64,000 nucleotides of DNA from Dioscorea cayenensis subsp. rotundata. Taxonomy: Eukaryota > Streptophyta > Magnoliopsida > Dioscoreales > Dioscoreaceae. The first letter of the stretch is position 1. Each line of letters opens with the position of its first letter. The stretch spans positions 4,898,001-4,962,000 of the forward strand of contig NC_052480.1 of the NCBI RefSeq assembly GCF_009730915.1. The letters are read 5' to 3'. Under the pieces are notes generated by a model, which saw only the letters and a program-made list of their open reading frames with translations, ran no database searches and was not told the origin of the DNA. A program made the translations under genes and the position numbers. This document shows positions 25,483 through 29,074 of the stretch, one piece after another.

Positions 25483-25706
25483 GTATGCAATGCATTTTAT
25501 TTAGCCATGGTTATTATGTGTGCAAATTGAAGTCATAAGCATGATATAATTACTTGGAATTTTATGCCGATCACTATATCTCGAATATTTTTGTCCTCTT
25601 TAGAACTAGTACAGAATTCATAACTGGCTAAGTCATTATGAGCAAAAGGTTTTTTTATGGTTCTTATTTTGTTGATCAATGTGGCATAGACAAGAGATGA
25701 TCCCCT

Positions 25707-26321
25707 ATGAAAGATTATTTTTACAAACCACTCGATCCTTACATATCTTTCTGGGAATATTCATCGTTCAATATTACCAGGATTATGAATGAATGGCTGG
25801 AGCATAATTTTCAGATTAATAATGCTGCGCAGCCGGATGAAAATATAATTATTCACAGAGAAGATTGCATAACGCCCATCAGTCTGACTGTCGAAAGCCC
25901 AAGTCGTATTGGTAAAACTGCTTGGGCCCGTTCACTTGGTAAGCACAATTATATATGTGGCCATCTGGATTTCAATCCAGCAACTTATCAGCAAGATGTG
26001 CTGTATAATGTAATTGATGATGTATCTCCATCGTATCTACGGCTGAAGCACTGGAGAGAGCTTATTGGTTGTCAAAGAGACTGGCAAACTAATTGCAAAT
26101 ACGGTAAACCGATCCATATAAAACGTGGTATACCGTCTATTATACTATGTAACCCAGGTAATGATTCAAGCTACAAAGAATACCTGGACAAAAATGAAAA
26201 TACAGGTCTGTGTGATTGGACATTGAAAAATGCCAAGTTTGAGTTCTTATATAACCCCCTGTTCCAATCGGCCCAAGCCCAAGACAGCAATACTAGTCAC
26301 TCGTCTGGATGTTCGGTCTGA
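25707..26321 (+). pseudogene. Endogenous geminivirus Rep, C-terminal helicase half
   Basis: A 204-codon frame matches the ATPase/helicase part of begomovirus-type replication initiator proteins. It has Walker A ESPSRIGKT, GHLDFN, Walker B NVIDDV, GCQRDWQTNCKYGKP and the IPSIILCNPG sensor motif, followed by the linker-like C terminus. In viruses Rep nicks and unwinds the circular genome. The N-terminal nicking domain (motifs I-III) is missing: upstream of about 25690 the sequence is host intron. In this copy the first Walker A glycine is Ser (AGC), whereas the inverted copy has Gly (GGC). A T5 homopolymer just inside the frame also differs from the other copy. It is a viral fossil that cannot replicate on its own. 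Confidence 0.9.
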
Positions 26322-26496
26322 ATATGGACAATAGAACTGGAGAACTACTCACAGAGGAACATGCAAATACGGGTGTATTCTACTGGCAACTACGTAATCC
26401 TCTGTATTTCAGGGTCAAAGATCACATGGACAGACCATGCAACAACAACTGGGACAGAATCACAATGGAGATCAAATTCAACTACAATCTTCGTAG
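26230..26496 (+). pseudogene. Geminivirus TrAP (C2) remnant, two internal stops
   Basis: In the third frame, overlapping the Rep end and REn start as in begomoviruses, the translation runs from ATG 26230 to TAG 26494. It contains THRGT followed by a Cys-bearing segment and a Gln-rich tail, the same order as the transcription activator protein. It is interrupted by TAG (26332-26334) and TAA (26395-26397). The Rep and REn frames overlapping the same bases remain open, so loss was frame-specific. The assignment rests on position and short similarity. Confidence 0.55.
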
Positions 26497-26728
26497 GGCT
26501 CTACGTATAAATAAATGTTGGTTGTACTTTCGTATATGGACCACACTACGTCCACGTACTGAGAATTTTTTACATGTATTTAGATGTAATGTAATGAATT
26601 TCCTTAATAGTTTCGGGGTTATTTCTATTAATTCTGTAATTAGAGCCGTTACACATTTCGTGGCCCGGTTCGAAAGGCATATCATAGACGTAGAGAATTC
26701 GGCCCATGTTCAGTTCTATTTGTACTAA
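26324..26728 (+). CDS. Endogenous geminivirus REn (C3), intact frame
   Basis: A 134-codon frame starts at MDNRTGE, three bases after the Rep stop; an in-frame ATG lies 15 bases further upstream at 26309. It matches the geminivirus replication enhancer over its whole length: NPLYFRV near the N terminus, IKFNYNLRRALRINKCWLYF, FRIWTTLRP and LNSFGVISINSVIRAV. In viruses REn binds Rep and host PCNA and raises replication. The frame is identical in length and protein sequence in the inverted copy at 28026-28430. No plant promoter is evident, and expression is not shown. Confidence 0.88.
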   Translation: MDNRTGELLTEEHANTGVFYWQLRNPLYFRVKDHMDRPCNNNWDRITMEIKFNYNLRRALRINKCWLYFRIWTTLRPRTENFLHVFRCNVMNFLNSFGVISINSVIRAVTHFVARFERHIIDVENSAHVQFYLY

Positions 26729-26882
26729 TTAATGAATTGCTTGTTTGATCACCGTTAACAACATGAAATTAATCTTTCTTAATTTAATGATAACATATAA
26801 AAAGACATATAAAAAAACAATTTTTCCAATAGCTTAATTGCACACTGCAAATACATTAAAATACTAATAATCGGAATCCTTG
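26729..26882. other. Convergent 3' region between REn and virion-sense ORFs
   Basis: AT-rich, with closely spaced A-rich motifs. This is where viral transcripts of both senses end in geminiviruses. Nothing more specific is seen. Confidence 0.4.
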
Positions 26883-27125
26883 CTAAACGGATGGATCAGA
26901 AGTCACCAAAACTTCTGGAGCATCTGAGCTTAAATTCTTATTATTGCCATCAGCTTGAATAAACGGATTCGCATATGAAAGATCTTCATCATCACTGGCT
27001 GCACTCGAGGCTACACGTAGCATACGGAAAACAGACTCTTCGTGTTTCTGGAGAGCGCTGACAAACTTGATGAGTGGTTGGGGATGCTCCTGATTGCTTG
27101 GGCTATACATATGCCGTGGAGGCAT
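26883..27125 (-). CDS. Unrecognised 80-codon virion-sense ORF
   Basis: An open frame convergent with REn, in the place where a geminivirus carries its coat-protein frame but far shorter (80 versus about 250 codons). I see no coat-protein motif. The product is acidic toward its C terminus (SSAASDDEDLS) and Asn/Ser-rich, with no membrane segment. It overlaps the 60-codon frame in another register, reminiscent of the V2/V1 overlap. It is preserved exactly in the inverted copy (27629-27871). It could be a remnant, a novel viral frame or chance. Confidence 0.45.
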   Translation of the reverse strand: MPPRHMYSPSNQEHPQPLIKFVSALQKHEESVFRMLRVASSAASDDEDLSYANPFIQADGNNKNLSSDAPEVLVTSDPSV

Positions 27126-27193
27126 TTAATGATCTCCGCAGGACCGTATTCCATAAACAAATAATATACGGCCATGATATCTTGTTTATCCAT
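27011..27193 (-). CDS. Unrecognised 60-codon virion-sense ORF
   Basis: First frame after the intergenic region, starting MDKQDIMAVYYLF, with a TATA-like sequence about 32 nt upstream of the ATG. It has the position of a geminivirus V2 (pre-coat) frame, but I find no convincing motif match. It overlaps the 80-codon frame by 115 nt. The inverted copy at 27561-27743 is identical. Confidence 0.45.
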   Translation of the reverse strand: MDKQDIMAVYYLFMEYGPAEIIKCLHGICIAQAIRSIPNHSSSLSALSRNTKSLFSVCYV

Positions 27194-27341
27194 CTTCTAT
27201 AACAAGCTATAAGGGAATGGTCTTATTATATAGAGGTAAAATGATGTTATTGTAACGGGTATATTGTTCCGGTCAAAAGGTCAACAGCTAAAGCCATATG
27301 GTGTCGGGGTTAGTAAACACCTAATAGGTACATACAGATGA

Positions 27342-27520: not shown

Positions 27521-27530
27521 CTATATAATA
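27521..27530 (+). promoter_or_regulatory. TATA-like element upstream of virion-sense ORFs
   Basis: CTATATAATA lies about 31-40 nt before the ATG at 27561, the spacing of a leaderless geminivirus virion-sense promoter. The mirror copy lies at about 27224-27233 on the minus strand. Confidence 0.45.
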
Positions 27531-27560
27531 AGACCATTCCCTTATAGCTTGTTATAGAAG

Positions 27561-27743
27561 ATGGATAAACAAGATATCATGGCCGTATATTATTTGTTTA
27601 TGGAATACGGTCCTGCGGAGATCATTAAATGCCTCCACGGCATATGTATAGCCCAAGCAATCAGGAGCATCCCCAACCACTCATCAAGTTTGTCAGCGCT
27701 CTCCAGAAACACGAAGAGTCTGTTTTCCGTATGCTACGTGTAG
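27561..27743 (+). CDS. Unrecognised 60-codon virion-sense ORF, inverted copy
   Basis: Identical in protein sequence to the frame at 27011-27193. Start ATGGATAAACAAG is preceded by the TATA-like element at 27521. Same uncertainty of function. Confidence 0.45.
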   Translation: MDKQDIMAVYYLFMEYGPAEIIKCLHGICIAQAIRSIPNHSSSLSALSRNTKSLFSVCYV

Positions 27744-27871
27744 CCTCGAGTGCAGCCAGTGATGATGAAGATCTTTCATATGCGAATCCGTTTATTCAAG
27801 CTGATGGCAATAATAAGAATTTAAGCTCAGATGCTCCAGAAGTTTTGGTGACTTCTGATCCATCCGTTTAG
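27629..27871 (+). CDS. Unrecognised 80-codon virion-sense ORF, inverted copy
   Basis: Identical in protein sequence to the frame at 26883-27125, in a different register from and overlapping the 60-codon frame. No domain recognised. Confidence 0.45.
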   Translation: MPPRHMYSPSNQEHPQPLIKFVSALQKHEESVFRMLRVASSAASDDEDLSYANPFIQADGNNKNLSSDAPEVLVTSDPSV

Positions 27872-28025
27872 CAAGGATTCCGATTATTAGTATTTTAATG
27901 TATTTGCAGTGTGCAATTAAGCTATTGGAAAAATTGTTTTTTTATATGTCTTTTTATATGTTATCATTAAATTAAGAAAGATTAATTTCATGTTGTTAAC
28001 GGTGATCAAACAAGCAATTCATTAA

Positions 28026-28430
28026 TTAGTACAAATAGAACTGAACATGGGCCGAATTCTCTACGTCTATGATATGCCTTTCGAACCGGGCCACGAAATG
28101 TGTAACAGCTCTAATTACAGAATTAATAGAAATAACCCCGAAACTATTAAGGAAATTCATTACATTACATCTAAATACATGTAAAAAATTCTCAGTACGT
28201 GGACGTAGTGTGGTCCATATACGAAAGTACAACCAACATTTATTTATACGTAGAGCCCTACGAAGATTGTAGTTGAATTTGATCTCCATTGTGATTCTGT
28301 CCCAGTTGTTGTTGCATGGTCTGTCCATGTGATCTTTGACCCTGAAATACAGAGGATTACGTAGTTGCCAGTAGAATACACCCGTATTTGCATGTTCCTC
28401 TGTGAGTAGTTCTCCAGTTCTATTGTCCAT
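28026..28430 (-). CDS. Endogenous geminivirus REn (C3), inverted copy
   Basis: Same 134-residue product as 26324-26728 (the frame can be extended 15 nt upstream to 28445). One synonymous change is seen (GCTGTTAC versus GCCGTTAC context near 28107). It follows the Rep fragment directly, as in the virus. Confidence 0.88.
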   Translation of the reverse strand: MDNRTGELLTEEHANTGVFYWQLRNPLYFRVKDHMDRPCNNNWDRITMEIKFNYNLRRALRINKCWLYFRIWTTLRPRTENFLHVFRCNVMNFLNSFGVISINSVIRAVTHFVARFERHIIDVENSAHVQFYLY

Positions 28431-28524
28431 ATTCAGACCGAACATCCAGACGAGTGACTAGTATTGCTGTCTTGGGCTTGGGCCGATTGGAACAGGGGGT
28501 TATATAAGAACTCAAACTTGGCAT
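28258..28524 (-). pseudogene. Geminivirus TrAP remnant, inverted copy
   Basis: Mirror of 26230-26496 with the same overlap of Rep and REn. The two stop codons seen in the first copy are carried here too, so they predate the duplication if the duplication is real. Confidence 0.5.
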
Positions 28525-29074
28525 TTTTCAATGTCCAATCACACAGACCTGTATTTTCATTTTTGTCCAGGTATTCTTTGTAGCTTGAATCATTACCTGG
28601 GTTACATAGTATAATAGACGGTATACCACGTTTTATATGGATCGGTTTACCGTATTTGCAATTAGTTTGCCAGTCTCTTTGACAACCAATAAGCTCTCTC
28701 CAGTGCTTCAGCCGTAGATACGATGGAGATACATCATCAATTACATTATACAGCACATCTTGCTGATAAGTTGCTGGATTGAAATCCAGATGGCCACATA
28801 TATAATTGTGCTTACCAAGTGAACGGGCCCAAGCAGTTTTACCAATACGACTTGGGCCTTCGACAGTCAGACTGATGGGCGTTATGCAATCTTCTCTGTG
28901 AATAATTATATTTTCATCCGGCTGCGCAGCATTATTAATCTGAAAATTATGCTCCAGCCATTCATTCATAATCCTGGTAATATTGAACGATGAATATTCC
29001 CAGAAAGATATGTAAGGATCGAGTGGTTTGTAAAATAATCTTTCATAGGGGATCATCTCTTGTCTATGCCACAT
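28433..29074 (-). pseudogene. Endogenous geminivirus Rep helicase half, inverted copy
   Basis: A 213-codon frame equal to 25707-26321 except that Walker A reads EGPSRIGKT (canonical first Gly) and a T4 homopolymer joins the frame to an upstream ATG at 29074. The first few codons (MWHRQEM...) probably come from host or linker sequence. The Rep nicking domain is absent. Of the four partial Rep copies in the window this is the best preserved. A residual ATPase fold is conceivable, replication is not. Confidence 0.9.

What the first reader, a model, noticed from the sequence alone, without database searches (positions are those of the whole stretch)
25690..29074. Endogenous begomovirus-like cassette arranged head to head
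Rep helicase half, TrAP remnant, intact REn and virion-sense ORFs are present in true geminivirus order, twice, facing away from a shared intergenic region. Known endogenous geminivirus elements (described in Nicotiana and Dioscorea) are uncommon, and I know of none described as an inverted pair. REn stays fully open in both copies and Rep lacks stops, while TrAP has two stops in the same bases.
Basis: partly seen in the sequence, partly recalled or inferred. Interest (0 to 1): 0.85.

Follow-up and report, generated by a model that had tools for sequence, protein, structure and literature searches.

The report
Inverted pair of yam fossil geminivirus
A piece of an old plant virus sits in a yam chromosome twice, mirror-fashion; it is one member of a large family of such fossils in this genome, several of which are also mirrored.

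Summary
Confirmed in outline. Window 25180-29565 is a palindrome; each arm carries the C-terminal half of Rep, an open REn, one broken virion-sense gene and part of the viral intergenic region. The Rep falls in a yam clade but is 61% identical to the published yam Rep found. The genome search gave 151 Rep matches. Head-to-head is not unique: 9 of 34 neighbouring listed pairs are opposite-strand, and 6 of 6 other such loci compared hold inverted viral repeats, 86-95% identical. A virus-free copy of the site on C8 shows that 0.5 kb of right-hand host flank was mirrored with the virus, so inversion followed, or was coupled to, integration. A third copy (46921-50582) and the 36-kb palindrome around it look like an assembly product. 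Open REn and Rep do not show upkeep: dN/dS is 0.13-0.17 between loci but 0.52-1.25 inside a tandem array. New member of a known kind.

The parts
25180..29565 (.). whole palindrome: inverted pair of endogenous geminivirus pieces with 0.5 kb of host flank on each outer side
   Evidence: self-comparison, 97% over 4415 columns; arms listed
25184..25706 (.). F': inverted second copy of the right-hand host flank, joined to A (derived junction)
   Evidence: C8 virus-free site L044: A matches up to window 25183, F+B match from 29046
25707..26321 (+). Rep C-terminal half, arm 1; N-terminus absent
   Evidence: ORF; 97% to arm 2 by protein; no Rep N-terminal match in the window
26309..26728 (+). REn ORF, arm 1
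   Evidence: same 139-aa translation as arm 2, which matches Gemini_AL3
26883..27193 (-). virion-sense gene, arm 1, split by a frameshift
   Evidence: two overlapping ORFs of 80 and 60 aa; single 103-aa ORF in L020
27194..27407 (.). viral intergenic region of arm 1, up to the inverted junction
   Evidence: window 27200-27407 aligns to the intergenic region of a C18 array unit, 90%
27408..27417 (.). 10 nt at the inverted junction matching neither side
27418..27560 (.). viral intergenic region of arm 2 (arm 1 runs 74 unit bases further)
   Evidence: window 27418-27540 aligns to the same unit on the minus strand, 94%
27561..27871 (+). virion-sense gene, arm 2, split by a frameshift
   Evidence: ORFs 27561-27743 and 27629-27871
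28026..28445 (-). REn ORF, arm 2
   Evidence: Gemini_AL3 E 6.9e-32
28433..29047 (-). Rep C-terminal half, arm 2; viral/host edge at 29047
   Evidence: Gemini_AL1_M E 2.7e-9; edge and the C8 site
29048..29565 (.). F: original right-hand host flank
   Evidence: continuous with B at the C8 site
46921..50582 (.). third reading of the same palindrome; its second half is shortened, 66-72% identical in the two longest alignable pieces
20057..55755 (.). larger palindrome around both, centre about 38087; probably an assembly product

Best explanation
An integrated, truncated copy of a yam endogenous geminivirus was duplicated in inverted orientation in the chromosome. Step 1 (inferred from sister copies): a linear virion-strand molecule entered the genome; in 5 of 39 viral chains examined the virion 5' end lies within 6 nt of the origin where Rep nicks (nick site recalled), while the other end varies. 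Here the variable end is at 29047, in the middle of Rep. Step 2 (shown by the virus-free C8 site): the copy was then, or in the same event, mirrored together with 0.5 kb of the right host flank, and the new end was joined to left flank A, with the 243 nt of the C8-type site missing. The inverted joint lies in the viral intergenic region, 205-242 unit bases short of the origin, with 10 unmatched nt and no shared word longer than 5 nt found near it. That fits fold-back or template-switch repair better than Rep cutting (inference). Rep lacks its catalytic half, so the pair cannot start replication by itself (inference); if transcribed across the centre it would form a hairpin RNA (inference, not tested).
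For: Domain matches. Yam clade with SH-aLRT 99, window row joined to D. rotundata P0006 at 98, 47 rows chosen by me. 151 Rep matches in the genome. C18 array units about 2.49 kb apart with Rep N-terminus and, in some units, the nonanucleotide. Virus-free C8 locus with A, 243 nt, then F+B. The same A|F' joint in the right outer arm, though that arm may not be an independent locus. Inverted viral repeats in 6 of 6 other opposite-pair loci compared, with arms 5-14% apart.
Against: Arm 1's outer flank (25180-25588) is about 91% identical to arm 2's, while the viral part differs at 12 of about 1650 positions, 9 of them in one 15-nt stretch near the centre. Of all 53 differing columns between the arms 55% lie at or beside CAG/CTG, 3.65 times expectation, so I read the flank differences as errors, but they could be real with gene conversion inside. 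The C8 site is another copy of a 2.4-kb repeat, not the allele. No reads were available. As far as mapped, arms of the other inverted pairs lie in viral sequence, so their mechanism may differ. 34 of 39 chains do not have a virion 5' end at the origin.
Confidence: 0.78

Rival explanations
1. The inverted pair is an assembly artefact from fold-back nanopore reads and the real locus has one viral copy.
For: A larger palindrome around it looks artefactual: right-arm differences are concentrated in CAG/CTG and CG words, and the second half of its small palindrome is shortened and 66-72% identical in the two longest pieces, as Spealman et al. 2020 (PMC7229812, passages read) describe for nanopore reads of inverted duplicates. 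The two outer arms carry different indels in a ZIP gene. Arm 1's flank also has error-like differences.
Against: A fold-back read of one copy would end in B-type flank, but arm 1 ends in A, at the A boundary seen at the C8 site, and the right outer arm shows the same A|F' joint. Other inverted pairs have arms 5-14% apart, which fold-back reads would hardly give.
Confidence: 0.13
2. Two viral copies integrated as a ready-made head-to-head dimer formed during viral replication.
For: Inverted viral pairs recur in this genome, and as far as mapped their arms lie in viral sequence.
Against: Here both arms carry the same host flank, and the virus-free C8 site makes that flank host DNA next to B. A dimer made before entry would have had to carry the flank.
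Confidence: 0.07
3. On the separate question of the outer palindrome: 20057-55755 and the third copy are real, a large inverted segmental duplication.
For: Sequence outside the two ends is unlike (score below controls); 40.5-47.5 kb of the right arm is 93-99% identical to the left; the 81-nt centre of the small palindrome has the same orientation in both outer arms, which a strand-reversed reading of one molecule would not give.
Against: Over about 1 kb the third copy has 31 indels and 146 substitutions, 30 of 38 CAG/CTG words altered and no codon-position skew; 11 real paralogs have 59-128 substitutions, 0-1 indels (one has 11), 6-16 of 38 words altered, and mostly a codon-position skew, weak in L019 and the C18 array copies. 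Differences between outer arms are strongly clumped.
Confidence: 0.3

Closest known systems
[quoted passage not shown] 2015, PMC5014472; abstract, results section and passages read)
   Same: Yam host, Rep and REn with begomovirus affinity, many copies, tandem repeats of about 2.6 kb (here about 2.49 kb); there no coat protein or TrAP homologue was detected
   Different: Rep is 61% identical to the deposited D. persimilis Rep P0007; a conserved 103-aa virion-sense ORF is seen here; 'inverted', 'head-to-head' and 'opposite orientation' do not occur in that text
D. alata EGVs in the survey of Sharma et al. 2020 (PMC7758297; abstract, first part of results and passages read)
   Same: 148 rep copies and three Rep clusters in D. 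alata, gathered in hotspots
   Different: 'inverted', 'head-to-head' and 'palindrom' do not occur in the main text; D. rotundata is not named in the parts I read
Nicotiana geminivirus-related DNA (GRD); known to me only from mentions in the two papers above
   Same: multi-copy integrated geminiviral Rep sequences, described there as tandemly repeated
   Different: not compared by sequence here
Begomovirus (exogenous; general genome plan recalled)
   Same: Rep central domain, REn, order Rep-REn-virion-sense gene beside an intergenic region; nonanucleotide in sister copies
   Different: no coat protein found in the pieces searched; the virion-sense gene is an orphan; Rep N-terminus and origin missing in this copy

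Membership tests
Yam endogenous geminivirus (EGV) | Rep/REn homologous to geminivirus proteins | tested here: met
   Gemini_AL1_M and Gemini_AL3
Yam endogenous geminivirus (EGV) | groups with the published yam EGV Rep | tested here: met
   7-row clade with P0007, SH-aLRT 99; quick tree of 46 chosen hits plus the window row, no bootstrap, outgroup not monophyletic
Yam endogenous geminivirus (EGV) | integrated in host DNA | tested here: met
   host flank continuous at both edges and a virus-free copy of the site; no reads examined
Yam endogenous geminivirus (EGV) | belongs to EGV1 or EGV2 | tested here: inconclusive
   61% to the one full-length published yam Rep listed (P0007), which I could not assign to EGV1 or EGV2
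Geminiviridae, genus Begomovirus | complete Rep with rolling-circle domain | tested here: not met
   no Rep N-terminal match in the window; Gemini_AL1 is present in sister locus L019
Geminiviridae, genus Begomovirus | origin with TAATATTAC | tested here: not met
   no exact match in the pair; present in some array units
Geminiviridae, genus Begomovirus | coat protein gene | tested here: inconclusive
   virion-sense pieces and the 103-aa sister ORF have no Pfam match above cut-off; genome search for PF00844 did not complete
Helitron-like element (suggested for yam EGVs by Filloux et al., passage) | defined ends produced by Rep-type transposition | tested here: inconclusive
   virion 5' ends within 6 nt of the origin in 5 of 39 chains, 0.2 expected if uniform; virion 3' ends 0 of 39

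The most novel reading that the evidence does not exclude
The yam family is a coat-less, geminivirus-derived replicon that spread inside yam genomes like a transposon: Rep, REn and an orphan 103-aa virion-sense gene in the place of the coat protein stay under constraint between loci (dN/dS 0.13, 0.17, 0.37), copies enter with the Rep-cut end first, and resident copies are then re-shaped by inverted duplication into hairpin-forming loci.
Probability: 0.2. Interest if true: 0.8.

Novelty: new member of a known kind. Interest (0 to 1): 0.45.

Why it matters
It adds a yam sequence that is 61% identical to the published Rep found, shows that mirrored pairs recur in this family in one genome, and gives one pair whose history can be read from a virus-free site. 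The excess of copy ends at the Rep origin and a conserved orphan gene bear on whether such elements entered as virus DNA or moved as a coat-less replicon. It also warns that the third copy in this assembly needs read-level checks before copies or broken genes are counted.

Tried and rejected
Inverted joint at the origin: rejected; the arms end at unit phases 1629 and 1666 while the origin is at 1870-1871. Third copy as an ordinary old paralog: rejected on indels, word context and lack of codon skew. Simple deamination as the main cause of its differences: not supported; of 68 altered CAG words the commonest outcomes were CGG (8), GAG (6) and CGA (6), with CAA 5; but CG to TG or CA made 35 of 88 altered CG. 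Strand asymmetry as proof of single-strand reading: weak, largest z 3.1 over 32 word pairs. Plain fold-back of one molecule for the outer palindrome: does not fit the equal orientation of the 81-nt centre in both arms; left open. Relatives in IMG/VR of the two virion-sense ORFs, REn and P0006 (Rep): none confirmed (the window's own Rep was not used there). Protein homologue of the 80-aa ORF: none. Pfam on three TrAP-frame pieces: none. Rfam families and tRNAs in the window: none. Groups of copy ends at phases 1495-1511 and 1582-1590 I take for alignment stops in diverged intergenic sequence; not proved. Genome searches for flanks A and B alone did not complete. The main text of the D. rotundata genome paper (PMC7749330, passages) does not name the read type; that this assembly used nanopore reads is recalled and inferred from the error pattern. 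A search for papers on nanopore errors at CHG sites found none.
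Full report
What is there. The inverted pair is present as described. Arms 25719-27336 and 27418-29035 are 99% complementary over 1618 nt with 81 nt between, and the mirror symmetry runs on to 25180 and 29565, beyond the virus. The arms carry the C-terminal half of Rep (Gemini_AL1_M, E 2.7e-9) and REn (Gemini_AL3, E 6.9e-32), then a virion-sense gene in two ORF pieces, then intergenic sequence. No Rep N-terminal match was found in the window and no exact TAATATTAC lies in the pair. The TrAP frame contains stops; three pieces between stops gave no Pfam match.

Host. G000 has 584,211,761 bases in 2249 contigs and the window is C10:4898001-4962000. So the host is white Guinea yam (inference from these two lengths).

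Family. The Rep search found 438 proteins, 120 of them listed. I chose 46 of the 120 and the window row for a quick tree. The window Rep joins P0006 (SH-aLRT 98) within a seven-row clade (99): window, P0006, P0007, P0008 and three rows from unnamed sources. That clade lies in a 22-row set (96) with Old World begomoviruses, Opuntia virus 1, a Camellia geminivirus, and Rhododendron and Sesbania sequences. The chosen outgroup was not one side of any branch, 23 of 44 inner branches are weak, and there is no bootstrap, so the genus is not settled. Identity to P0007, the deposited D. persimilis Rep, is 61%; to P0006 92% over 84%. Whether the lineage is new or one of the three D. alata clusters of Sharma et al. 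(passage) I cannot tell. The genome search gave 151 Rep matches, a lower bound; the 150 listed fall in 116 clusters at 5 kb, 19 of them with more than one match.

Other copies. On C18, units with Rep starts about 2.49 kb apart run head to tail in the order Rep, REn, virion-sense gene, intergenic region, with Rep N-terminus and, in some, TAATATTAC. One such unit in L020 has the virion-sense gene as one 103-aa ORF without a Pfam match above cut-off. Of 17 copies found, 9 single-locus copies without indels gave dN/dS 0.37 in frame against 1.21 and 1.10 in the other frames, and 0.57 among 4 C18 array copies; so it is very probably a protein gene. Its place is that of the coat protein (genome plan recalled); a genome search for the coat family did not complete.

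Selection. With 11 Rep and 12 REn copies lacking insertions, dN/dS between single loci is 0.13 and 0.17, within the C18 array 0.52 and 1.25; wrong-frame controls of window against copies gave 0.89-1.67. Constraint thus acted mainly before or between integrations; an open REn in the window is no sign of use by the plant. It does not exclude it either: Filloux et al. report purifying selection after integration, strong for EGV1 and moderate for EGV2.

How copies enter. On the C18 unit, taking the window edge 29047 as phase 0, the origin is at 1870-1871. From 31 loci (L009-L019, L024-L043) I took viral chains of at least 250 nt; one cut by a locus edge was left out, 39 remained. Virion 5' ends lie within 6 nt of the origin in 5 of 39 (L009, L015, L017, L019, L032) against 0.2 expected if uniform (4 of 39 within 3 nt; 6 of 39 within 25); virion 3' ends in 0 of 39 within 6 nt and 1 of 39 within 25. 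L019 and L032 are near-complete units opened there. This is what a linear strand with Rep on its 5' end would leave (inference).

How the mirror arose. Host flank F (29075-29565) has five matches in the genome: three in the window's three copies, a 54-nt piece in the corrupted right-arm stretch, and C8 at 90%. The C8 locus L044 holds A (window 24931-25183, 92%), then 243 nt without a match in the window, then F and B (29046-30982, 91.7%), and no match to the other viral loci held. Its likeness to the window ends at L044 1869 and 4308, so C8 is another copy of a 2.4-kb repeat, not the allele. It shows that F belongs with B and that A|F' is the new joint. The virus-host edge 29046/29047 agrees between both comparisons. 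The inverted joint in the centre has 10 unmatched bases; arm 1 runs 74 unit bases further than arm 2. I conclude a fold-back or template-switch duplication after, or coupled to, integration.

Not unique. 9 of 34 neighbouring pairs within clusters are on opposite strands: the window pair, two in the C18 array, and six elsewhere. All six of those loci (L009-L014) hold inverted repeats, best match 86-95% identical, and L021 of the C18 array has shorter ones. A further inverted repeat is in L038 (94.6%); I did not check whether it is viral.

The third copy. Position 46921-49243 is 86% identical to 25180-27538, and 49121-50582 holds shortened, colinear remains of the other arm, 66-72% identical in the two longest pieces. 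The outer palindrome runs from 20057 through about 38087 to 55755. Compared with 11 real paralogs, the third copy has 31 indels against 0-1 (one 11), 30 of 38 CAG/CTG words altered against 6-16 of 38, and no codon skew, while most paralogs show one (weak in L019 and the array copies). Differences between the outer arms form 241 and 199 clusters against 631 and 474 expected if scattered. A ZIP gene has different indels in each arm. Spealman et al. 2020 describe missed bases after the junction of inverted duplicates in nanopore reads (passages), which fits. Against a plain artefact: unlike sequence outside both ends, and the 81-nt centre has the same orientation in both arms (score 74 against 47 flipped; shuffled mean 46, maximum 59). 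I lean to an assembly product, about 0.7.

Literature. In the library, a search for endogenous geminivirus with 'inverted repeat' gave 7 papers (listing only); 'inverted' and 'head-to-head' are absent from the main text of the two EGV papers. A search for geminivirus integration with nick site and origin gave 2 papers, seen as a listing. I therefore saw no description of mirrored EGV pairs or of EGV ends at the nick site, but most subscription papers are not in that library.

Noticed in passing
window 20057-55755: Large palindrome centred near 38087 with error-like differences between arms; its small inner palindrome keeps the same centre orientation in both arms, unexplained.
   Followed up: partly
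window 32914-33465 and 42882-43376: The two outer arms each carry part of a ZIP zinc transporter gene with different indels, as if one locus had been assembled twice and polished unevenly.
   Followed up: partly
L020 1-10000 and L021 1-10000: C18 array of head-to-tail viral units about 2.49 kb apart, followed by short Rep pieces on the other strand.
   Followed up: partly
L020 8456-8767 (-): Conserved 103-aa virion-sense ORF of unknown family in the place of the coat protein; dN/dS 0.37 between loci.
   Followed up: partly
L044 1869-4308: 2.4-kb repeat on C8 homologous to the host DNA around the insertion; family not identified.
   Followed up: no
window 7233-8874: Cytochrome P450 coding pieces (Pfam p450).
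   Followed up: no
window 11554-11976: Plant transposase fragment (Plant_tran).
   Followed up: no
window 12836-13338: Tandem array of a 129-nt unit, about 3.9 copies.
   Followed up: no
window 17839-18838: Gap of 1000 N about 1.2 kb before the outer palindrome begins.
   Followed up: no
L038 8-2585: Inverted repeat of about 1 kb at 94.6% near a Rep match.
   Followed up: no
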